In this document: piece by piece, positions 4,477 to 28,000 of the stretch
Numbering within the stretch: position 1 is the stretch's first letter
Layout: each line of letters opens with the position of its first letter
Assembly: GCF_000219625.1 (NCBI RefSeq)
Contig: NC_018213.1
Coordinates: 1,978,055 to 2,042,054 of the forward strand
Length of the DNA: 64,000 nucleotides
Direction of reading: 5' to 3'
Origin: Zymoseptoria tritici IPO323
Taxonomy: Eukaryota; Ascomycota; Dothideomycetes; Mycosphaerellales; Mycosphaerellaceae
Translations under genes and position numbers: made by a program
The notes under the pieces: model-generated
Told to the model about the DNA's origin: nothing
The model's input: only the letters and a program-made list of their open reading frames with translations
Database searches by the model: none

Positions 4477-7400
4477 ATGAATAGCAGCGCAGACAACCTC
4501 TTCGGCCCTCAGCTTCCTGGATCCTACGACTTCACAATCGTCTTCGAACAGAGCATCCTGTCTCTGCTGCCATCATGCATCTTTCAGCTCGCGGCAGTAG
4601 TGCGAGTGCTTCGCCTCTGGCGTCGACAGACGCATCCACGATCGAGACTGTACACGGCAGCGTCGACATCAAAGTTGGTAGGTGTCCATGCATTCCTGTC
4701 CGGAAATTTTCCTCCCATCTAAGCTGATAAACCAGTAGGTACTTGTCACGGTACACTTCTGCGTCCAGGTCGCATTTCTGGTCCTGTGGTCGCTCCCTCC
4801 ACATGGAAAGCACATACTTCTCTCCCTCTGGCCACAATCGGCGTGCTTGAAGCCGTGGCGATAGCGGTGGTTTCCGGATTCGAACATTTCAAGTCGAAGA
4901 CGCCTTCATTGCTGTTGAATGGGTTCCTGCTCCTGTCGCTCGTGCTGGGCATTCCTGTAGCCAGGATTTATTGGCTCAGACCAGGATTTCAGATAATTGC
5001 AGCTGCTTACACAGTCTTGCTTGCGATCAAGGCGCTTCTCCTCATCGTAGAAGAGCTCCCGAAACGACACGCAGCTGCAGGCGACCATCCGGGCGTGGAG
5101 TCGAATTCGGGGATCCTCAGCAGAAGTGCATTCTGGTGGCTCAATCCGCTGCTGCTGAAAGGTGCAAGGTCGATTCTTTCAGTTGATACAATCAGCAGCA
5201 TTGGGCCCAAGTTCTCTTCTCAGAGACTGAAGAATAAATTGGAGCACTACTGGAATCTTTGTAAGTACAACTTTGCCGCCTAGACGCATTCGTTTCCCTT
5301 GTTTGACCTGAGATCGCAGATGATCGAAAGGACGAATACGCTCTGCTTAAGTGCACATTTCTGGCGTACAAGGGGCAATTCGTAGCCGGAGTACCGGCTC
5401 GCATATGCTCAAGTGCATTTAACTTCGCACAACCATTCCTCATTCACTCCCTCGTAGACTTCGTTGGCCAGCCTTCAGATCAAAGGTCCAGGAGCGCCGC
5501 GAATGGTCTAATTGCTGCGACAATCCTTGTCTATCTGGGTCTGGCAATATCCAACGGCTGCTACCGCCACATGACCTATCAATTATTGACCATGTGTCGC
5601 GGCGGGCTCGCTCCACTCATTTTCGGCAAGATGCTCAGGCTTCAATCGAGCAAAATCGAAAGTGCTGCACCAGTGACTCTGATGAGCACAGACATCGAAG
5701 GCATTATGCTCTCAGGGAACGCCGTACATGATGCCTGGGCCTGCCTGTACGAGCTTCCATTGGCAATGTATATTTTGCACAGATACGCTGGCCACACTAG
5801 CCTGCTCATACTCGTCCCGACCGTTGGTACGATAAGCTGTAAGGTGAGAAACTTGAGACCGACTTGCTGACGACCGCTAGTCTCTTCACTTATTTCATTC
5901 AAGATATCGCCGGCCATGGGACCCGCCAGATCCAGATGGAGCGAGGCCATACAAAAGCGGATCGCTGCAGCATCCGGCATTTTAAGTCACATAAAGAGCA
6001 TCAAGATCACGGGTTCTTGTCAGCTGTTCCACGACCATTTACAGAATCTGAAGCGGAGTGAGCTCAAGTTGTCGCTCGCTTGGCGGCGAATCTGGATTGG
6101 AGTGAACATTTTAGGTGACTCGAATGCGCTTTGAACTTACAGATGAAGAGCCTGTCACTGACCGATCGTAGCTACGCTTGCCGAAGATCTCACGCCTGTC
6201 TTGGTTATGCTCGCCACTATCCTTTGGTCCAAAGCAGGGCAAGATCTTACCTTCGCGGAAGCATTTACAATCCTTGCCGTCATTAATCTCACGATCACAC
6301 CGCTCAATCATATGCTCACATTGCCATCCCAGATCGCCAGCGTAATGGGTTGCTTTCGCCGTCTGCAAAGCTTCCTCCGCCTCGAAGAAGACCATTCGAT
6401 GTCGGAGCATCGTCTTCGCCGGCCATTGCTTAAGCCACATAACGCGACAGATAGTCGTGTTCAGGGCTTCGAAATGCAAATACCGACCTTTTGCGATGAC
6501 CGGCCCTGCCTGGGAATGACCGATCAGGAATACAGTCCTCCAGGAAGCAATATCGCGATCGCCTTAGAGCACGCCAGCTTCTCGGGCAGCGACGGTCGCA
6601 TCGTTCTAGAAGATTGCAACCTCCTTTTCGAAAGAGGGAGTCTTTCCATGATCGTTGGCCCGACAGGATCTGGAAAGTCGTCCTTGCTGAAAGCTATCGC
6701 AGGCGACATGACGAATACTTCAGGGCAGGTCATGGTCGATTGCAGAGCTATAGCGCTCTGTGAACAAGAGCCTTGGCTACAGAATGTTTCCATCCGGGAC
6801 AATATCATTGGCAAGTCGGCACCAGACGAAGCCTGGCTGGACGTTGTGCTACAAGCGTGCGCCCTCAAAGCCGACATCGCGGCTTTATCCAATCATCAAT
6901 TCACCATCGCTGGATCGGGGGGCATTGCGCTCAGTGGTGGGCAGAAGAAGCGAGTGGTATGTTCGACGCATCCCGCACGCGGCCAATAATGGTATGGATT
7001 GACACTTTACACTTTCTAGGCTCTCGCGCGTGCGGTGTACTCGCGTTGTCCTCTACTTCTCTTGGACGACATCTTAAGTGGTCTCGACAGGACGACCACC
7101 GATGAGATTCTTGAGGCTCTTCTGGGTCCATCTGGTCTGTTGCGGCATACCGGGATCACGATTGTCATGGCCACATCGAGCGGTAGGAATGAGGTCGCTG
7201 CCATGATTCAGTCCAAGCACTAATGCGCTTCCGAGTAGTCGAGCATCTTGAGTTCGCAGACCGCATTACCGTTCTCCATGAAGGACATGTCAGCAAAGGT
7301 CAAGTGACTTTGGACCGTATTGACCCTGCAACACAGCGTACAATACCACACGAGACGGCTCGCAAAGCTGCCTCAAGCGGCGGCTACGGTCAGCATGCAT

Positions 7401-9570
7401 CGCAGTCTTCCGAAGCACGACCTATCATGATCAGGGACAACAACACAGACTTCAAGAGACAAGCAGGTGCGGCTGAGTACTGGAAGGTCTATCTCCGGTC
7501 CGTTGGCGCATTTGGTGCGGGTGCCCTGCTCATCATCACTTCACTGCATACCGTGTTTGCAAAATTGCCTCGTAATCATACTACCCTTTCCACGAGAATA
7601 TCGTTACTTTACTGACTTCACGTTTCAGAGATATGGCTCCTTTCATGGACAAAAGAAGGGACTCGCAATCACGATGGTTATCACATAACCGTATACATAG
7701 CACTGGCCTTTGCTTCGTCTGCCACTTTCACCGCCGACCTCATGTGAGCCATCCAAATCGATGTCCGGCTAGGGAAAGTCCGCTGATCGTCTCTAGTTAC
7801 TTTCTGCTGATTACTGTTCCACGATCTTCGAAGAATCTGCACGGCCTTCTGGTGACCTCCGTGCTCAGGTCAGCAGACATACATGATGCATGAGCCAGAA
7901 AAGTGCTCACACGGCTCTAGAGCTCCCCTTTCTTTCCACACCTCGACAGATTCCGGCACCATTCTCAATCGGCAAGTGCATGATCAATCGATGTGAAGAG
8001 AGCTCACTGACAATATGACAGGTTCAGCCAAGATATGACACTTGTTGATAATGCACTACCAATGGCTGCGCTGATGGCAATAGTTTGTAAGTTGACACAA
8101 TCGCACATGATACAAGGTCAATGGCCTAATCGGATCAAGTCGCTTTCCGTGCGTTAGCAGAAGTGGTCATCGTTGCATCAGGCGCATCTTTCGCCGCAAT
8201 CGCTATCATACCGAGTGTTGCTGCCTTGTACTTTGTGCAAAAGTATTACCTTCGAACGTCCCGACAAATGCGCCTTCTGGATCTGGAAACGAAATCGCCA
8301 CTGTACACTTTGTTCAAGGAAACACTGGCGGGACTGGCCACCATTCGTGCCCTTGGCTGGGATACTGCCTTCGTGCAAGACTGCGAGCATCGATTGGACG
8401 AATCACAGAAACCGTTCTACATGATGTTCTGCATACAGCGATGGCTCCAGGTGGTGCTCGATCTTTTCACTGCTGGTGTCGCTTTGGTACTTGTCTCTCT
8501 GGCAGTGAATACTTCCGATGCAACATCCAAGGTTGCCATAGGTTTGGCCTTGGTCAATCTGATCGGGCTAAGTCAGACGCTGGTCTTGGTCATTGATCAG
8601 TGGACGCGGTTGGAGACTACGCTCGGGGCGGTCGCAAGACTCGACTCTTTCATCAAGGATTCTCCCGACGAGGATCGATCCGGTGAGCCACGTGGGTCCG
8701 GCTTACCAGACGACTGGCCGAGTCGAGGTGAGCTCGAGTTCGAAAATGTTACGGCTTCTTATGGGTAGGCAAGAAAACAGCGTATACCGTGGCTTCAATA
8801 GTTCTACATGCTGACGCCAACGCAGAGAACACGCCGCCGGTAACGCCATTCGCAATATTTGTCTCCGAGTGCAAAGCGGCCAGAAACTTGGCATCTGTGG
8901 CAGATCTGGAAGGTTTGTGCCCCGGAAAGCAGCGTTCATTGTCAAGCAAATTTGTACTAAGCTTTCTGGCAGTGGCAAGTCATCCATCGTTCTCGCAATT
9001 GCACAGATGATCCAGCTCAATACCGGACACATTCGACTCGATGGCATTGACCTCGCAACAATAGATCTGCAAGAGCTCCGCTCACGTCTGATAATTGTAC
9101 CTCAAGATCCTCTTGTCTTCTCGGGCACCATCCGACAAAACCTCGTCCCATACGACAGGCAGGCGCCATCGGACGACCGCATCGTTGAAGTCCTTCGCAA
9201 AACCCTCCTCTGGCCAGTAATCTCGTCCAAAGGCGGCCTCGATGCGGTCATGGACGACGGCTTCTCAACTGGACATCTGCAACTACTCGGTCTAGCTCGC
9301 GCATTACTCGCACCTGGATCGATTATCATTCTGGACGAAGCAACTAGCAGCGTTGATCAAAAGACGGACGAGCAAGTGCGAGCTCTGATATGCGATGAAT
9401 TGATCGGTCGAACGGTGATAGAGGTTGCACATAAATTAGAAGTCATCGGTGGTTATGACATGGTCATTGTGGTCGACCAAGGAAAGGTCATTGAGTTGGG
9501 AAACCCCCGCGAGCTGCTAATCAAAGATGACCCAAGTGCCTTTGCGGCTTTGTGGAGGCAGGCTTGTTGA
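4477..9570 (+). CDS. ABCC-type (MRP-like) full-length ABC transporter, 14 exons, with a possible early frameshift
   Basis: This is a membrane ATP-driven exporter of the ABCC group with TMD0, TMD1-NBD1 and TMD2-NBD2. Exons by splice signals and family fit: 4477..4681, 4739..5260, 5320..5843, 5904..6114, 6172..6956, 7020..7182, 7239..7571, 7629..7743, 7797..7868, 7921..7971, 8022..8086, 8140..8764, 8826..8912, 8973..9570 (1,451 residues). NBD1 has Walker A VGPTGSGKSS, Q-loop CEQEPW, LSGGQ and LLLLDDILSGLD. NBD2 has Walker A GRSGSGKSS, VPQDPLVF and IIILDEATSSVD. Oddities: the NBD1 H-loop reads ATSS with no His, and the NBD2 signature is FSTGHLQ. Intron 10 starts with GC. In exon 2 the family-like TM helix (VAFLVLWSLP) lies in a different frame from the rest; see the findings. 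The substrate is unknown. Confidence 0.9.
7972..8021 (+). other. Non-canonical GC-AG intron in the ABC transporter
   Basis: The exon ends ..AATCG and the intron begins GCAAGTGC, ends ATGACAG, and is 50 nt long. Joining CG|G restores the codon order ILNRFSQDM, a conserved ABCC stretch. No GT donor nearby gives the same protein. GC donors are normally rescued by an otherwise perfect GCAAGT, as here. Confidence 0.8.
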
Positions 9571-11250
9571 ATTGTTGACTGGGTTCGAGGGGTGACAGCA
9601 AGCAAGCGATACTGCCTGAAAGACGACAACTATCGCCTTAGTCTGCTCAATCCAGTCTCGATACAACGGGCGTCAAATTCGCTCGAACCGTGTTCATCGA
9701 TGTGCTGCAAGTCATACCATGTCGGTTGCTTCTTATCGGAGGTGTGTCGTCAATTCGAATGCGGCGTGGCCAGCGAGCTGGAACACGCTTGACGCTTCCT
9801 GGGCGAGACTTATCGCCGTCGATTTTGCTTGCACCGATCACGCTATACGGACGGATGCTGTTTCCGGCAGTTCAATGTGCACAGGTTGCTGTGATGGGAA
9901 ATGAAGCTTGATGTGAAAAAATGGGTCGCCGAGATAGGAGCCTCCCGACCGCTCGCAACAGAGGTAATCTCATGGGACCAGACGCAATGTTTGGCGTGTG
10001 ATCGCACCCTGGAGAAGTTGCCGGTATCCCCCAAGCGATGCAGACCCCTGGACATATCGGCCCCTGCTCAGGTATGTACGGCAATAATGTGCTGTTCAGT
10101 AGCGCTGTCCTGCATGCAGTCCACACTGCTCTCCGACGAAGCTCCGTGATCCTTTCACTACGCTGCCACCATTCGAGACAAGGGTCCCCTCTCGCAGCGG
10201 TGCCTGCAGTTGTCGAGACCTGCATATCCTATATCACGGCGCTAGCAACTCGCTATCCATGTCTGCATCTTGTGCCGCATACTTTTGGCGCTGTAAAAGA
10301 ATTTTGTGATCGAAAATTGCCGGGATCTTGATCATGCACGATTGGCTCATACTGGCGAAGCATGACCGTAGTCAAAAAATCGATGCCCATACTGTGTCAA
10401 TGAATGCTACGGAGGAGGACCTGTTCATCTGGTTCCATATCGTCTTAGGCGGTAAATGTGAAGCTCAAGCGTACCGCATTCAAGTCGTTAGGAAACCAAA
10501 GCCCCTGCCCGCGGACCAGCTATGTTGCAAAAGTATGACGGAACCGAAGGACCAACTCACTGCTTGATCACGCCTTGCTCATGCCATCGTGGTCGCGGCA
10601 CTTGAACGGTCCTGGCGATCTAGCTCATCTCGTCTCCGACACGGGACCATTTCGTTCCTTCAGCCGACGTGATTCTGTTACTGCATTTCGGGGGCCAATA
10701 TCCGCCGGGGCACCCGGTATCCACAATGTACACCAATAACTAGCGCTCGGTTGTCAATCTGGGGTAAGGAGAAACAAGGCGGAAGGCCAGCAAAGATAAG
10801 GCATTTGGCGTGCAACATGACCAGGGGTCTGATGCTTCATGTGACATCGAGCCAGCGTCCTAGCGCGGGGCCAGTGAAGTAGCGGAGCCTAGCATGCAAC
10901 GACTCTGTGTCATTTTGAGGACATATACCCGCGAGGCATGACTCGGTCTCGACCTTGTGTCTCACCGACGGTCGTCGAGTGAGATGCACACTACAGCATC
11001 GAAGACGTGCGGCATGCAGCGTCGTCGGACCAAAACACCATCAGGATCGTTAGGCTGTTGATACTTGCAGTGTCCACCGGTCTTGCATGGACGGTCCGAA
11101 AGCTCCACTGGCCAGACTATCAGATGGTCTCTTCTTGCTGTCGAGGCATACTTATACAAGCGAAGCCTTCGGCTCCATTTGGAATGTTGGATTGCTCACT
11201 CAAATCCTTTCTGCAATCCATTATCGCACACCTTTGCTTCCACCTTCACC
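9571..11250. other. Intergenic, no recognisable gene
   Basis: About 1.7 kb lies between the ABC transporter and the UstYa-like ORF. The longest ORFs (9872..10225 on the minus strand, 10328..10567 on the plus strand) have no domain I recognise and no matching splice pattern. A TATA-like ACTTATACAA occurs near 11147, about 100 bp before the UstYa-like ATG. Confidence 0.5.
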
Positions 11251-11661
11251 ATGCGCGACGAGAAGACCGAAGTCCAGTTCTCGTTACTGTCCGGTGAGGA
11301 GGACGAATGCCTTACCGAGAGACCGCACAAGCGTTCTCTAAGATTCTACCTTTGGGGGATCGTGCCTGCTGTGATCATTTACACTCTCGCGGTAGTGGCT
11401 ATAACTTCCAGCGCTTTCGATGCCAGCTGCGCTGGTGGACCTCGCATTGTGCCCAATATTCTTCAAGACTCCATACGATATCAGCCACAGACCTGGCAGG
11501 ACCACGACATGATCACTCATCCCTACTTCGGTCACCCGACCGCTGACTTGGACCGTCGATGGAAGGACCTTCTGAAATGTGAGCTGCCGAGCTCGGCCCA
11601 TTGCGAGCGAGCCCGCGGTGGGGAGGGCTCGAAGCGAGGTGGACTGAGGTTCAGAGATTAA
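11251..11661 (+). CDS. UstYa/DUF3328-like membrane protein, N-terminal part only
   Basis: The ORF encodes 136 residues from an ATG in ACCATGC context. It has an acidic cytosolic N-terminus (SLLSGEEDE), one transmembrane segment around residues 33-55 (FYLWGIVPAVIIYTLAVVA), then the luminal stretch with YQPQTW, HPYFGHPTADLDRRWKDLL. This order (short polar head, TM helix, Y-x-P, PxxxLDxxWxxLL) is what I know from UstYa-family oxidases, which cyclise peptides in fungal RiPP pathways such as ustiloxin. The family's two HxxHC motifs, which come later and are needed for activity, are absent both in the ORF and in the following kilobase. The last 25 residues are Arg/Gly-rich and may be intron read-through from a GTGAGC at 11579. 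It is probably a truncated gene or pseudogene. The neighbouring repeat precursor supports the family call. Confidence 0.55.
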   Translation: MRDEKTEVQFSLLSGEEDECLTERPHKRSLRFYLWGIVPAVIIYTLAVVAITSSAFDASCAGGPRIVPNILQDSIRYQPQTWQDHDMITHPYFGHPTADLDRRWKDLLKCELPSSAHCERARGGEGSKRGGLRFRD

Positions 11662-12737
11662 AGAGTCTCCGGTACTTGGTAGCTCCGCATAATCTCTTCG
11701 TGCCGGCCCAGAGAGTGCACTCGTGACAGGTCTGCAGGAGCTCTGCTGGCGCTCTCTCGCGGTGGCAGCAACGCATCTGGTCCTCTAGGCCTCTCGACCG
11801 CTACGCTGGCCGCGATACAAAGTTACTCGTCGTAGCGGCGCGCAGATTTGAGGCAGATTTGCAATCCGGGCTTGCGCGGCTTGAGGGAGCCGATGATGGA
11901 TAAAAGATGTATTCATCTGGTCGGCCAAATCAAAACATGCGCATTGCATGGCAGAATAGCGATACGAACTTCCTTCCTAATGCGGTAAGCGAGCCTTAAT
12001 TCTGACATCCTGATGGCAAGTTCCATCACGCTGGCACGATGGTTCGGCGGGTCCCTCGGCGGCACAGCGACATTGGAAACGATCTCGGTATGCTAGAGCA
12101 CTGTCTCACTTTGCGCAGTACGACCGTAGAGCCATGTATCCGCCTGGCGAGCTCAATTGCCACGAGCTACAGCTTTCAACCGGCACAAGTGCGAGTCCGG
12201 CGACAGCTGGCGCCCGTGCCAGATGCGCTTCTGAGCTTCATTCGACCATGCGAGCGCTTCGATTGCTGGATCCGCTTTGCCGTACTTGCGCTTGGTCCTG
12301 ATGCAGACCGGAGGAAGTGCCCCATGGCGGTGTCGTCGGGCTCCGCTGTCACCGCGTGATCAATAGAGCAGAGACATGCACAGTCCATAGGCTCGCAACG
12401 ACCGGTCTAGCTCGCATGATCTGGTCGGAGTCTGTGCAACTAGATGAGTATGCGTCAGTCAGATGCGCCGAAGTGGGATGGGGTAGTCCGCCCTGATAGG
12501 ATTGTGGAGCAATACTGTTGTCGTCTGGTCTAGGGCGAGCTTGTGACTCTCGATGTCACCCAAGCTGTCTGGCCACGGCCTGCGGAGCTGTGTGACTGTG
12601 TGGCTGTGAGCATATATACTGCTCGAAGCCTTCGATTTTGAGCAGGTGCAACAACTCTCGCAAGTCAAACATCCCTCAGAAGTCCCTCATCAGCACCGAA
12701 TCTTTCATCTCGTTATTCCGGGCCCTTGTCAACGATC
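11662..12737. other. Intergenic between the UstYa-like ORF and the repeat precursor
   Basis: About 1.1 kb without a recognisable gene. I searched by eye for the HxxHC motifs that would complete the UstYa-like protein and found none in frame. The right end should contain the precursor's promoter. Confidence 0.5.
12611..12620 (+). promoter_or_regulatory. TATA-like element of the precursor gene
   Basis: CATATATACT lies about 120 bp upstream of the ATG at 12738, a plausible distance for a TATA box with a short 5' UTR. This rests on sequence inspection only. Confidence 0.4.
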
Positions 12738-13379
12738 ATGCCTTCAATCTCGACAGTCCTGCTTGTCCAGCTGCTTGCTGCAAACGCCATCTTGGCAGCA
12801 CCATTGAATGGTAAGGCAACCCTCTTCCAACCCAGGGCACCAGTGGTGACAATGCAAGCAGGAGCGAATACTTACCTTCATGCTGGCCCAGACTACGTCA
12901 ACTACGCCGAGAAGAGGGACACTGCCGTCGAGGACGCAGCTGACTACCTCAACTACGCCGAGAAGAGAGAAGACGCTGCTGCCGACTATCTCAACTATGC
13001 CGAGAAGAGAGACGCCGTGGCAAAGGACGAAGCCGCCGATTACATCAACTACGGCGAAAAGAGGGATGCCGTGGCCAAGGATGAAGCCGCCGACTACCTG
13101 AACTACGCCGAGAAGAGGGACGACGCCGCCGCGGACTACCTCAACTACGCCGAGAAGAGAGAAGACGATGCTGCCGACTATCTCAACTATGCCGAGAAGA
13201 GGGACGCCGTGGCAAAGGACGAAGCCGCCGATTACATCAACTACGGCGAAAAGAGGGATGCCGTGGCCAAGGATGAAGCCGCCGACTACCTCAACTACGC
13301 CGAGAAGAGGGACGCCGTGGCCAAAGATAATGTCATGGCCAAAGAAGAGGCTGCGGACTACCTCAACTACGCCGAGTAG
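12738..13379 (+). CDS. Secreted tandem-repeat precursor with Kex2 sites, candidate dikaritin-type RiPP precursor
   Basis: The 213-residue protein starts with a signal peptide (MPSISTVLLVQLLAANAILA, about residues 1-20) and a short pro-region to about 51. Ten repeats follow, with cores DYVNYAE (once), DYLNYAE (seven) and DYINYGE (two). Nine of the ten cores are followed by Lys-Arg, at residues 59, 76, 90, 108, 126, 140, 154, 172 and 190, the cleavage site of the Golgi protease Kex2. Spacers are acidic and Ala-rich (DAVAKDEAA and shorter). The last core ends directly at the stop codon. There is no intron and no Cys. This plan matches UstA/PhomA-type precursors of cyclic Tyr-containing peptides, and a UstYa-like ORF lies 1.1 kb upstream. 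I do not recognise this core. Alternatives are a Kex2-processed repeat protein without modification, or a cell-wall repellent-type peptide. The ATG at 12738 is chosen because the upstream extension lacks an ATG. Confidence 0.85.
   Translation: MPSISTVLLVQLLAANAILAAPLNGKATLFQPRAPVVTMQAGANTYLHAGPDYVNYAEKRDTAVEDAADYLNYAEKREDAAADYLNYAEKRDAVAKDEAADYINYGEKRDAVAKDEAADYLNYAEKRDDAAADYLNYAEKREDDAADYLNYAEKRDAVAKDEAADYINYGEKRDAVAKDEAADYLNYAEKRDAVAKDNVMAKEEAADYLNYAE
12973..13312 (+). repeat. Internal 192-bp tandem duplication in the precursor gene
   Basis: The block starting GCCGACTATCTCAACTATGCC at 12981 recurs at 13173, an offset of 192 bp (64 codons, four peptide repeats). Across about 140 bp the two copies differ at only a few bases, including the same synonymous codon choices (GATTACATCAACTACGGC). 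Array growth by unequal exchange is the likely cause. Confidence 0.85.
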
Positions 13380-13992
13380 AAGAGGCGCGCCTGCTGGAAG
13401 AGGTCGGCGGTCATAAAGTAGGCCGTGCAGAGGCGGGCACTCGCCATCGTCCGGACGGTGAAGAGGACCTGAGAGCCTGCTCCTTGAAAGCGCTTCGATT
13501 TATGGGCGATGGTGTGGAGGAAGCGGACCACTAGCGTTCCGGTTATGACAAGCATATCGACTGCTGCCGACGTGAGTGATCCTTCGTAAACGCAAATGCA
13601 ATGTCTGTTGCAAACGTCCTCTCGTCAGAGCTCTCGCAGTACCGCCACATTCCTTGTCTTAGCCCTACTCCCCGATCGAGGTGTCCTCCTTCCCGTTGGC
13701 TGCGGCCTGGCGTAGATGACTCCGATTCCGTTTCATGTTTTGGCCGTTTCCAACTCCAGTTGTATCGGCGAAGCTTGCGGGCGTCCAGTGCAGGACGAAA
13801 GCTCTGCGGTCCACGCGCATCTGGACATACCAGTTCGCCAAGATCGGTCGGTTCGGGATTCAACATGAAATCCTCTTTGCAATGCGATTGGCAGAAAGCG
13901 GTTATGTTTATCCACTGTTCTTCGCAACGCCAATGCATTTTAACAAACGCTTTCACAGACCTCGTACGGCTCACTAACCTCCAGCCTCTTGC
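13380..13992. other. Intergenic, no recognisable gene
   Basis: About 600 bp lies between the convergent precursor and Avo2-like genes. Overlapping ORFs on both strands (for example 13543..13974 on the minus strand) have no recognisable domain. Confidence 0.5.
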
Positions 13993-14941
13993 TCACTGTA
14001 CACCTCCACTTCCCGACCGCGTCCTGACCATCGCAATCGTGGCCGCTCCCCAGTCCCCCCCACCTCTAACACCCGGTGGCGTAGGCGGTCTCCTCCTTTC
14101 CCCACTTGGACTCCAGGCTTGTTTGCTCATCACATCATCCTCCGCGGTACCACCACTACCTTCGTCGTCCATAACCAACCTCACTGCCCCAGCTCTAATG
14201 CCCACCTTTCCACTCTCCCTCTGCTCCGCCTCAATCATCTTCCTCCTCTCATACTCCGCTACCAGATTCCGGAAATACACCTCCGCCGCCACGGTCTGAC
14301 TGTACGCCACGGGCATCCAGTCGTAAAAGTTCCTCGCCGTGGGATCTGCGCCCGCATCTAGCAATAATCGCAGAGCTTTCAGCCCGCCGGAGGCCGAAGC
14401 GTGGTGTAATGGCGTGTTGCCTTCGTTATCCCTACTCTCCATGTCTGCGTAGTATATCCCGTTGCCGGAGAGGAGCGTTGGTATCAAACCGGTAGACGCA
14501 GTGTTTTGTGTTGCCAATGCGAGGGCGTCGAGGCCATCTTTGTTTCGGTAATGTATCGACCGCGGGAAACGCACGGCGAGGAAAGTAGCAGTTTCGACGT
14601 GCCCGGCTTGAGCGGCGAGCATGAGAGGGGTGTTGTGATCTGCATTGCGGCTGATCTCGTCGCCGTCGTGTCCAGCGTCGATGAGCAGGGTGGCTATGGT
14701 TGTGAAGCCATGCGAGGCAGCTAGGTGCAGGGAGGTGTTGGCTTTCGAGCTGAAGTCGGGATTGGAAAGGAGACGTGGATGAGAGCGAAGGAGACGAGAG
14801 ACGAGGGAGGCATCGTTGAGGTGGATTGCGCGGCGGAGGCGGATGGACGGTTCGATCCTGTTGGTAGTGGTGTCAGTGATGTGGGAGGTGAAGGGGCTGC
14901 CGGGTTTTTGTGAGTGAGTGCGAGAAGTGAAGAACATACAT
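13993..14941 (-). CDS. Ankyrin-repeat protein, probably TORC2 subunit Avo2
   Basis: The protein has about five ankyrin repeats: residues after IRLRRAI, then NTSLHLAASHGFTTIATLLIDAG, NTPLMLAAQAGHVE, GLDALALATQ and NTPLHHASASGGLKALRLLLDAG. A charged C-terminal tail contains PPTPPG. This layout and the N-terminus (IEPSIRLRRAI) fit fungal Avo2, a non-essential peripheral subunit of the TOR complex 2 that links it to plasma-membrane signalling. An 82-nt intron (14858..14939, GTATGT, CACTGAC branch, CAACAG) leaves AT of exon 1 (14940-14941) joined to G of exon 2. The start codon is therefore created by splicing, and the protein has 288 residues. Unspliced, an ATG at 14955 reads through in the exon 2 frame with an unrelated 33-residue head. 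Assignment to Avo2 is by overall look. Confidence 0.75.
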
Positions 14942-14955
14942 TTTGTTGATCTCAT
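14940..14955 (-). promoter_or_regulatory. Five-codon uORF overlapping the splice-created start codon
   Basis: After removal of the intron, the mRNA reads ATGAGATCAACAAAATGATC. The first ATG opens a five-codon uORF whose TGA overlaps the main ATG in an ATGA arrangement. Such overlaps allow re-initiation or repression. The uORF is visible directly; any effect on translation is inference. Confidence 0.5.
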
Positions 14956-15334: not shown

Positions 15335-16749
15335 TCACTTCCTCCTCGCCATGACCTTGGTACACATGTCCATGAGCCCAACCTTCGCCTCGCTTTCGGG
15401 GAAGCCTGCAATCGCGCGTGCAGCTCGATCGACATAGTCTTGTGCCAGAGCTCGTGTCTGCTCAATTGCGTCGCTTTCAAGCACTATTTTGCGAGCCTGG
15501 AAAAGTCAGCAAAAGTCTCCCATCGCATCGACTCCGCAACTTTACTCACCCTTGCGACGTCGCCCTCCTCCGCAAACTTCCTCCCAACCAGAGTTCCCAG
15601 CTCCTGATTATCTTTCCACGCGAACAGCAACGGCGCGGTAGCCAGACCAAGCTCTAGATCAGCACCAGCCGGCTTTCCCAACTCCTGTCCGCTCACGGTG
15701 TAGTCCAGCATATCATCCACCAATTGGAACGCGAGTCCAAGGTTCTTTCCGTACTGGTATGCTGCCTCTACCACCTCTTTTGGATGCTCTCCTAACAACG
15801 CCGCTGCTCGGCAAGACTTGCTGATCAAGCTGGCGGACTTGAGGTATGTCTTTTGTAGGTAATAGCTTATTGTGTCCTCACTCCATGTTGGGTGCTTCTC
15901 GTCAAGAGCCGTGTTTTTCAATTGCATGAACTCGCCCTCGACCAGATTTGCAATGACTGTCGCGAGCAGCTCCGTCACTTCCGGGTCGCGTAGCCGTGCC
16001 ATCGCTACTGATGCTCTCCCGAGCAGGAAGTCCCCAGCCAAAACCGCCATCTTGTTGCCAAATGCGACATTCGCCGAAGGATTGCCTCGCCGTGCTAATG
16101 AGGTGTCGATAACATCGTCGTGAAGGAGGGAAGCGGTGTGGATGAGTTCGGTTATTTCTGCCAGTCGTCGTTGTGTTGGTAGGACACCGCTTTCGATCGC
16201 AGCTGCGTCAGCCTCGACGGTATCTGCTGTCACCAGTGGTGATGAAGGATTCGCGTCGTTGAGGACGGATGCCGAAGCGAAGGGTGTATTTGTGGCATCG
16301 GGAGAGGCAGGTCGTGGTGCTCGTGGGAGGAGGGCCGTTGCTTGCGATATGAGTAACACTAGCATTGGCCGGACATATTTCCCTTCGCATTGTGTGTAGT
16401 ACTTCGCAACAGTGTCCAGCATGGGATGTCCGGATCCCAATAATTGTTGTATGTTGCCCGTCATGAACTTCATCTCTTTCGCTACACTCCTCAACGGATC
16501 AATGCCCATGGGTCCTGAAGGTGGCGGGCCATTGAACATCTGCTTCGCTGCCGACACCGCTGCTGCAACACCAGCGTTACTCCGTCGCGTACTATCATGA
16601 TACTCTTTCCGTCGGTCATTATGGAATGTGCGGTTGGAGATGGGTAGGAGGCATTGCGGACATCGTAATCGTGGTCGGAATGCGGATGTGGCTAAGGTCT
16701 CGACTTTCCCAACCAAAGCACGCGAGTGCTGTAATTTTGGTGCAGGCAT
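15335..16749 (-). CDS. COQ1: Mitochondrial polyprenyl diphosphate synthase for ubiquinone side chain
   Basis: The enzyme extends allylic diphosphates with isopentenyl diphosphate to make the ubiquinone tail in the mitochondrial matrix. Two exons: 16749..15550 and 15496..15335, with a 53-nt intron (GTGAGT..TTTCCAG). The product is 453 residues. The first Asp-rich motif DDVID (residues 211-215) and the second DDMLD (345-349) are intact. GKYVRP, HTASLLHDD and LAFQLVDD are conserved. The N-terminus is basic with hydroxylated residues and no acidic cluster until about residue 18, fitting a presequence. The frame continues upstream to a TTG at 16815, but the first ATG is at 16749. A Pro/Ala/Ser-rich insert of about 45 residues lies before the first Asp motif, as often seen in fungal COQ1. 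The gene is divergent from VMA12. Confidence 0.95.
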
Positions 16750-17000
16750 ATATTCGTCTCCAATGCGGACTGCGGTCGGCGGATCAGATGTGTCAGGGGT
16801 GTTGTCCGATCGCAAGCAGAAGGTCGTCCAGTAAAGAATGTCGGGATGCGGGTCTTCACGGAAGACAGTCCGAGTGCTGTCAAGTAAATTCTTGAGCTGT
16901 ACATGACGCTAAGATTCAGCCCTATAGCTCCTGTCCTTTTAGCCAGGTACCAACCACTTCATGTGAATCTCCTTGCACTTCAAGCAGATTGCGAGACGGC
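16750..17000. promoter_or_regulatory. Shared divergent promoter region between COQ1 and VMA12
   Basis: These 251 bp separate two divergent start codons and must hold both promoters. No specific element stands out. Confidence 0.5.
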
Positions 17001-26624: not shown

Positions 26625-26920
26625 AAGACGCAGCACTGAGGCAGCCAGCAAGAAGAGAGGTATGTGGAATGCATGCACGAATCAACGATGCGCCATGTTG
26701 GGGTTCTTCTCGAAGTACAGTATTATCATGTCCAATGCCATCCATCCTCAAAATCGTACTTCGCCGTTTCCTGTGGCCATCGCACGAGGAGATCCAGGAC
26801 GAATTGTATATGGCATCGATAGGGTCGATAGTCCATCGCACATCATCTCTCATCGACATAACGCTCGATCCAAGCAAAATTGTTCCCAGCTCGCGCTCCG
26901 ACCAGGTCCCGCAGGTATGG
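26625..26920. other. Intergenic between convergent genes
   Basis: About 300 bp lies between the stop codons of the secreted protein (+) and the first cysteine-rich gene (-). No additional gene is seen. Confidence 0.5.
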
Positions 26921-27272
26921 CTAATAGCACTTAGCATCGATTGGAAAAGTCGTCCATTGATTATCGAAAGGAATGCCGTCGACGTAGCACTCCCAGCCCT
27001 TTGTCGAGAGAGGGAGACGTTAGCGCAAGGAAAAGCGATGCATAACCTTCGGTCAGGATCACGGCGACTGACCTCGCGGCATGGATAGTTCCACTGTTCT
27101 GTTTTCTCTGGTTCGCCTTTGCAGAGGCCATAGGCAGTGGGACCTTTGCCAGTGGTCCTGGTGTATTTCTAGATCTGGTCGGTGTAGGAGGTAAGAGAGC
27201 AGCGACGAGACTTACGTAGGCCGTGGCCAAGGATGTAAGGGCGAGAAGGTTGGAGAGGTGGAAGATCTGCAT
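26921..27272 (-). CDS. Small cysteine-rich secreted protein, tandem family copy A
   Basis: Three exons, 27272..27216, 27168..27073 and 26998..26921, encode 76 residues. Exon 1 is a signal peptide (MQIFHLSNLLALTSLATAY). The mature part contains TTGKGPTAYGLC, YPCRE, GWECYVDGI and a final KCY. Introns of 47 and 74 nt sit at the same codon positions as in copy B. Compared with copy B, the first cysteine is a tyrosine (KYTR instead of KCTR) and one mid-chain cysteine of B is missing, so at least one disulfide must differ. Function is unknown. Size, signal peptide, Cys content and tandem duplication are those of candidate effectors or antimicrobial peptides, but I recognise no named family. Confidence 0.75.
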
Positions 27273-27532
27273 TTTCTTGGTGTCAATCGTTGGAACCTCT
27301 CAAGTGCTTGTGGCGAGAAGATCAAGAGAGCATCGAGAGCTGAGTACGCCTCTCATGTCGCGCTTTCTTGAGCTGATCAAAGATCGATGATAAGGCTACC
27401 CTGTATACATATCACCACATCCGACCTGTTCTTCTCCCAGATTGACCGCCTCAAATTTGCAGTACCTCGTACTCTCTCTCAACCCGAACTCGTTGCTGGC
27501 GCTCGTTCGAGTGGCCCTCCCGCATGCAAAGG

Positions 27533-27879
27533 CTAACTGCACAAGGCGTCGGAACCGTGCACCTGATCGATTTGGGGATAGCACTCGATATCATCTTGGT
27601 AGCATTCCCAACCCTAGGACCGAGTCTATCAGCAATAGCGGAAGTTGAGAGCAACGAAGAGACGACGGACATAACGGCATGGATAGTTCCCAATCTCGAG
27701 TGGATTTCCCGGCTCGGCCTTGCAGAGACCATAAGGAGCGGGTCCGTGACCAGTAGCCCTCGTACATTTCTGGTCGTTTGTTAGTAAAGGGCGTGCGGAC
27801 GGAGAGGAGCGGAGAGAGTCACGTAGGCTGTGGCCGCGGTGGCGAAAGCGAGAAGGACGGAGAGCTGGAAGAATTGCAT
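27533..27879 (-). CDS. Small cysteine-rich secreted protein, tandem family copy B
   Basis: Three exons, 27879..27823, 27769..27671 and 27613..27533, encode 78 residues. The signal peptide is MQFFQLSVLLAFATAATAY. The mature protein contains KCTRATGHGPAPYGLC, NYPCRY, GWECYQDDIEC and ends DALCS, giving six cysteines. Introns of 53 and 57 nt start GTGACT and GTCCGT and end GACCAG and CCTAG; both branch-like motifs (ACTAAC, GCTGAT) are visible. All three exons are phase 0, so exons correspond to signal peptide, first half and second half. It is the intact member of the trio. Function unknown; see copy A for alternatives. Confidence 0.78.
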
Positions 27880-27880
27880 T

Positions 27881-27905
27881 GTTCTTGTTGTTGTTGTTGT
27901 TTTGG
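27881..27905. repeat. (TTG)n microsatellite
   Basis: A short TTG run (GTTCTTGTTGTTGTTGTTG) lies directly upstream of the copy B start codon. Confidence 0.85.
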
Positions 27906-27940
27906 AGTTGTGACCGTTGGAAAGTTTTGTTTGGTAATAG

Positions 27941-28000
27941 CAGGAAGAGAGAGGGAGATAGGGAGAGAGAAAGAGGGAGAGAGAAAGAGGGAGAGAACCA
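27941..28000. repeat. GA-rich microsatellite
   Basis: A purine tract built of GAGAGAAAGAGG units lies 60-120 bp upstream of copy B, within its presumed promoter. Confidence 0.85.

What the first reader, a model, noticed from the sequence alone, without database searches (positions are those of the whole stretch)
12738..13379. Candidate new dikaritin-type RiPP precursor with ten YxNY cores
Seen: a signal peptide, ten near-identical cores (DYLNYAE, DYVNYAE, DYINYGE), nine Lys-Arg sites and acidic spacers. Known: UstA, PhomA and asperipin precursors share this plan, with Kex2 releasing Tyr-containing cores that UstYa-family oxidases cyclise. Inference: this locus makes a cyclic peptide with a core I do not recognise. 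Two Tyr per core (Y-x-N-Y) would allow one or two Tyr-derived crosslinks.
Basis: partly seen in the sequence, partly recalled or inferred. Interest (0 to 1): 0.9.

Follow-up and report, generated by a model that had tools for sequence, protein, structure and literature searches.

The report
Repeat peptide precursor beside truncated oxidase
A fungal gene carries ten near-identical short peptides ready to be cut out of a secreted precursor, but the neighbouring oxidase gene that would normally cross-link such peptides has lost its catalytic half, so in this isolate the peptides are more likely released without cross-links.

Summary
ORF 12738-13379 (+) encodes a signal-like start and ten DY[L/V/I]NY[A/G]E cores, nine followed by Lys-Arg and the tenth by the stop. 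An in-frame 81-nt intron (12811-12891) probably removes 27 residues. It is a Kex2-processed repeat protein (KEP) with the plan of ustiloxin/phomopsin precursors; its core was not found in the full-text searches made. The genome is probably Zymoseptoria tritici IPO323 (name recalled).

A UstYa-type gene lies 1.16 kb upstream (11251-11661), but only its N-terminal half is recognisable. No + frame from 9001 to 14500 holds the HxxHC copper motif, whereas 29 of 30 UstYa loci of about 3 kb from this genome hold at least one. A profile of those motifs scores three held-out loci at 48.7-51.1 bits and this stretch at most 4.1. No tyrosinase or S41 peptidase match falls in the window.

Best reading: an open, apparently constrained KEP whose partner oxidase is truncated in this isolate, giving linear peptides unless another UstYa protein acts in trans. 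New member of a known kind. Expression and conservation in relatives could not be tested.

The parts
12738..13379 (+). KEP precursor ORF, ten DY[L/V/I]NY[A/G]E cores, nine KR sites
12738..12810 (+). predicted exon 1: signal peptide, ending ...AILAAPLN
   Evidence: signal peptide judged by eye
12811..12891 (+). predicted intron, 81 nt, GTAAGG...CAG, in frame, no stop
   Evidence: similarly placed donor after ...SAPIFN in the contig-4 precursor; no RNA evidence
12892..13379 (+). predicted exon 2: ten cores and spacers
11251..11661 (+). N-terminal half of a UstYa/DUF3328 oxidase gene with membrane anchor (similarity ends near 11583; possible donor at 11579); no HxxHC motif follows
4723..9570 (+). 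ABC transporter gene in several exon pieces (two PF00005 matches, one PF00664 over cut-off); possible exporter, link to the KEP not shown

Best explanation
The ORF is a Kex2-processed repeat protein. Inferred route: it enters the secretory pathway, Kex2 cuts after nine Lys-Arg sites, Kex1 removes Lys-Arg, and a Ste13-like dipeptidyl peptidase may trim the acidic/Ala spacers, releasing up to ten Y[L/V/I]NY[A/G]E-type peptides per precursor. The gene is, or was, paired with a UstYa-type cross-linking oxidase. In this isolate that neighbour keeps only its membrane-anchor half and no copper-binding motif, so the locus cannot by itself cross-link the peptides; they are released linear, unless another UstYa protein of the genome acts in trans. 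Shown by sequence: the precursor anatomy, the missing catalytic half, mostly silent differences among cores. Inferred: splicing, processing, expression, absence of cross-links, and that the two genes were once a working pair.
For: Ten cores and nine KR sites; pS 0.44 against pN 0.051 among cores. UstYa half beside it: PF11807 positions 4-94 of 220, 26.4 bits, best paralogue stretch 61% identical over 23 columns, E 0.001. No HxxHC in + frames of 9001-14500 nor within 1.5 kb of the UstYa match, against at least one in 29 of 30 UstYa loci. Motif profile from 23 pieces: three held-out loci 48.7-51.1 bits, best piece of 11251-12900 4.1 bits on the minus strand, best + piece 1.6. Pair geometry: four other KEP arrays in this genome lie about 0.8-1.25 kb from a UstYa match and have at least one HxxHC beside them; here the gap is 1.16 kb.
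Against: No expression, mass or population data. The UstYa match is near the cut-off (26.4 bits, 24.2 and below cut-off), so the half could be a chance or very divergent relative. One of the 30 UstYa loci, L031, also lacks HxxHC in its 3 kb, so absence near a match is not unique. The three held-out loci were picked by me from those with both motifs. The open frame and constrained cores fit a functional product and do not say whether it is linear. The core Tyr pair fits a cross-linked product: Tyr is in 65.6% of KEP repeats with a DUF3328 neighbour and 38.2% without (PMC7329392, Discussion).
Confidence: 0.6

Rival explanations
1. Working dikaritin pathway: the YxNY cores are cross-linked by a UstYa-type oxidase encoded elsewhere, or by an unrecognised oxidase, giving a new cyclic peptide.
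For: Precursor plan and Tyr-rich cores; many UstYa matches elsewhere (61 matches) and tyrosinase genes elsewhere (18 matches). Asperipin-2a is made by a four-gene cluster with a single UstY homologue and no tyrosinase listed (PMC6514808, passages), so a sparse locus is no bar.
Against: The neighbouring UstYa lacks the catalytic half. In the same genome the EDYVIP array on contig 4 has UstYa matches, a tyrosinase and an S41 peptidase match within about 24 kb, which this locus has not. Action in trans is not known to me for this family (recalled).
Confidence: 0.2
2. Linear peptide signal or effector by design: the KEP releases unmodified peptides with a pheromone-like or host-directed role, and the UstYa half gene is an unrelated relic.
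For: KEPs without a DUF3328 neighbour are common (22% of KEP genes have one, PMC7329392, Discussion). XA dipeptides, said to mark alpha pheromones (PMC6339444 section 8), follow KR in 5 of 9 spacers (DAVA).
Against: No Cys pair and no PYGxPxG, the two alpha-pheromone types described for this class. The UstYa half sits at the distance seen for other precursor-oxidase pairs.
Confidence: 0.13
3. Decaying locus: the pathway is being lost, the precursor is not expressed and the peptides have no present role.
For: Oxidase truncated. The stop after core 10 is followed in frame by AAG AGG, Lys-Arg codons, so the array may once have been longer.
Against: The precursor frame is fully open, every core is intact and core differences are mostly silent; the stop leaves core 10 complete. 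No RIP-like composition in the oxidase region.
Confidence: 0.07

Closest known systems
Phomopsin/ustiloxin-type KEPs (type G-10, core YXIX; PMC7329392, section 6 part 1 and Discussion), with a copy in this genome on contig 4
   Same: Signal peptide, many near-identical Tyr cores, acidic residues before the core Tyr, KR after each repeat, a similarly placed intron behind the signal exon
   Different: Core Y[L/V/I]NY[A/G] instead of YXIX; no tyrosinase or S41 match in the window; the UstYa neighbour is truncated
Asperipin-2a precursor AprA and cyclase AprY (core FYYTGY; PMC6514808, passages)
   Same: Several Tyr per core; small locus with precursor, one UstY-type gene and a transporter
   Different: Different core; AprY is a working cyclase, the gene here lacks the HxxHC half; no isoflavone reductase seen among the 20 protein pieces scanned
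Ascomycete alpha-pheromone precursors (PMC6339444 section 8)
   Same: Secreted repeats cut by Kex2; XA dipeptides after KR in 5 of 9 spacers
   Different: No Cys pair and no PYGxPxG in the core

Membership tests
Kex2-processed repeat proteins (KEPs) | Secretory precursor with repeated motifs separated by Kex2 sites | tested here: met
   Ten cores, nine KR; signal peptide judged by eye only. Definition from PMC7329392 passages
Dikaritins | Precursor with signal peptide and highly repeated cores | tested here: met
   feature as stated in PMC12048977 passages
Dikaritins | DUF3328/UstYa protein with HxxHC motifs in the cluster | tested here: not met
   N-terminal half only; no HxxHC in + frames of 9001-14500; profile at background
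Dikaritins | Tyrosinase, S41 peptidase or methyltransferase in the cluster (not in all known cases) | tested here: inconclusive
   0 of 18 tyrosinase and 0 of 3 S41 genome matches fall in the window; methyltransferase not searched genome-wide, none among 20 protein pieces scanned
Dikaritins | Transporter in the cluster | tested here: inconclusive
   ABC transporter at 4723-9570; functional link not shown
Dikaritins | Tyr-derived cross-link in the product | not testable with these tools
   needs mass spectrometry
Ascomycete alpha pheromones | Core with two Cys, or PYGxPxG | tested here: not met
   no Cys and no PYG in the ORF; feature from PMC6339444 section 8
Ascomycete alpha pheromones | Ste13 XA/XP dipeptides after the Kex2 site | tested here: inconclusive
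   DAVA after KR in 5 of 9 spacers, not in the other 4

The most novel reading that the evidence does not exclude
The YxNY cores are substrates of a UstYa-type oxidase encoded elsewhere in the genome, giving a new Tyr-derived cross-linked peptide in which precursor and cyclase have come apart; or the peptides kept a role after losing cyclisation, a RiPP precursor turned into a source of linear peptide signals.
Probability: 0.2. Interest if true: 0.7.

Novelty: new member of a known kind. Interest (0 to 1): 0.42.

Why it matters
KEP precursors are widespread but few products are known. This one is open, apparently constrained, and its only local oxidase is incomplete, so it offers a direct test of whether such cores are used linear, modified in trans, or are relics. 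It also adds a YxNY core to the KEP arrays of one genome (repeats containing EDYVIPVD, YEGDVEWK, RGGIMDYIKR, SPYYGDRQNYKR and VYAYAPSKR).

Tried and rejected

Completion of UstYa by ORF 12039-12359: rejected, no Pfam match up to E 0.1 and no HxxHC. A transposon insertion behind the UstYa half: not supported, 11580-12737 and 9571-11250 each gave only themselves in the genome (that search skips very common words). RIP damage there: not seen. An HxxHC on the minus strand near 9998 lacks the following L..R pattern; taken as chance (3% of shuffles of 11251-12737 give one in the three + frames). The precursor's sub-cut-off Pfam matches (ATP-synt_B, 26.8 bits against 28, and three weaker) were taken as low-complexity matches.

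The EDYVIP pattern with a close KR failed; the relaxed one found nine exact sites in one array on contig 4, one exact site on contig 2, and 13 one-mismatch sites. Alpha-pheromone patterns: strict none; relaxed 12 single sites against 3 for the reversed control; inconclusive. My first C-terminal profile was empty through a bad pattern and was redone. Core strings in the literature gave no paper that I could connect with this core, judged from the listings. Passages seen of two papers on Z. tritici gene clusters (PMC5561558; PMC8939313) do not mention this core. Supplementary tables, where KEP lists are kept, could not be opened, so this KEP may already be listed.

Full report
1. What is there. 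ORF 12738-13379 (+, 213 aa) is at the coordinates given. It holds ten cores: 7 DYLNYAE, 1 DYVNYAE, 2 DYINYGE; nine are followed by Lys-Arg, the tenth by TAG. Spacers from Lys-Arg to the core Tyr are 6, 9, 10 or 16 residues, acidic and Ala-rich. The precursor has one match in the genome, itself, and the core pattern's nine exact matches all lie in it. Core codons vary mainly at silent positions (pS 0.44, pN 0.051, 45 core pairs), which points to selection on the peptide, with the reservation that recent duplications make the pairs dependent.

2. Gene structure. A GT-AG intron of 81 nt (12811-12891) fits: donor GTAAGG, ACTTAC near the 3' end, acceptor CAG, in frame, no stop, so both forms are readable. 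Spliced, the protein runs signal peptide-APLN-DYVNYAE-KR. Support from the same genome: in the EDYVIP precursor on contig 4 the signal-like frame piece ends ...SAPIFN followed by GTGAGT, and the repeats lie in another frame piece. No RNA was available.

3. Which genome. 39,686,251 bases in 21 contigs. Consistent with that, there are nine EDYVIPVDKTKR repeats on contig 4, and two surveys report a phomopsin-type precursor from Zymoseptoria (core YVIP: PMC7329392, passages and Discussion; EDYXI motif in Z. tritici: PMC6339444, section 10).

4. The neighbour oxidase. Upstream on the same strand, 11251-11661 encodes the N-terminal half of a UstYa/DUF3328 protein: 26.4 bits, profile 4-94 of 220, cut-off 25. 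The genome scan gives this stretch 24.2 bits, just below cut-off. Its PYFGHPTADLDRRWKDLLKCEL stretch is 61% identical over 23 columns (E 0.001) to a paralogue on contig 12. The catalytic half is not found. No + frame between 9001 and 14500 has HxxHC, nor any within 1.5 kb of the match. Of 30 UstYa loci fetched from this genome (about 3 kb each, several pairs covering the same gene), 29 have at least one HxxHC on the matching strand and 20 have two or more, some of these clearly chance; the exception is L031. A 32-column profile from 23 motif pieces scores three held-out loci, picked from those with both motifs, at 48.7-51.1 bits and the best piece of 11251-12900 at 4.1 bits on the minus strand, among background. 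In CctR, a DUF3328 enzyme, these motifs hold two copper ions per monomer and alanine mutants lost all activity (PMC12435403, passages). The 1158 bases behind the half gene gave no second copy in the genome and no RIP-like composition.

5. Comparison inside the genome. In these, four other KEP arrays lie about 0.8-1.25 kb from a UstYa match: repeats with RGGIMDYIKR on contig 6 (L011), YEGDVEWK on contig 7 (L018/L030), SPYYGDRQNYKR on contig 7 (L040) and VYAYAPSKR on contig 2 (L047). All four have at least one HxxHC beside them. The half gene here ends 1159 bases (possible donor) or 1076 bases (ORF end) before its precursor. The fuller contrast is contig 4: EDYVIP array at 1706288-1706688, UstYa matches at 1684589-1691926, tyrosinase at 1688404-1689081 and an S41 match at 1682555-1682749. 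None of the 18 tyrosinase or 3 S41 matches of the genome falls in this window.

6. Other neighbours. ABC transporter pieces lie at 4723-9570, with two ATPase-domain matches. Then ordinary genes: ankyrin protein (13993-14955, -), polyprenyl synthetase (15484-16908, -), Vma12-like, DEAD_2 helicase, UDP-glucose:glycoprotein glucosyltransferase. Pfam was run on 20 protein pieces of the window, not on all 74 ORFs listed.

7. How it probably works. The precursor enters the secretory pathway, is cut by Kex2 after Lys-Arg and trimmed by Kex1; spacers may be removed two residues at a time by a Ste13-like enzyme (8 of 9 have even length and 5 of 9 begin DAVA). All of this is inferred. Cross-linking would follow in a complete dikaritin locus. 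Here the local gene cannot do it, so linear peptides are the first expectation and modification in trans the second.

8. Known or new. It is a KEP. It is built like a dikaritin precursor, but the locus does not meet the dikaritin definition, since the oxidase feature was tested and not met. Hence a new member of a known kind, with the truncated partner as the point of interest.

Noticed in passing
contig 4, 1682555-1706688 (L053 and neighbours): A phomopsin-type KEP with nine EDYVIPVDKTKR repeats, with UstYa, tyrosinase and S41 peptidase matches within about 24 kb; reported for the genus in the literature.
   Followed up: partly
L011, L018/L030, L040, L047: Four further KEP arrays about 0.8-1.25 kb from UstYa matches, with cores unlike each other.
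   Followed up: partly
L031 (contig 7, 643111-643272): The only one of 30 UstYa loci without any HxxHC in its 3 kb; a split motif or another degenerate UstYa gene.
   Followed up: no
window 13377-13394: The stop after core 10 is followed in frame by AAG AGG, the Lys-Arg codons that follow the other nine cores.
   Followed up: partly
window 34000-64000: AT-rich half with RIP-like dinucleotides (GC 0.432, TpA/ApT 1.96, (CpA+TpG)/(ApC+GpT) 0.34) and no stop-to-stop ORF of 150 aa.
   Followed up: partly
window about 26900-28000, - strand: Two similar small secreted-protein-like genes (starts MQFFQLSVLLAFATA and MQIFHLSNLLALTSLATA, each with a G.GP.[AP]YGLCK.EP stretch), perhaps a tandem pair.
   Followed up: no
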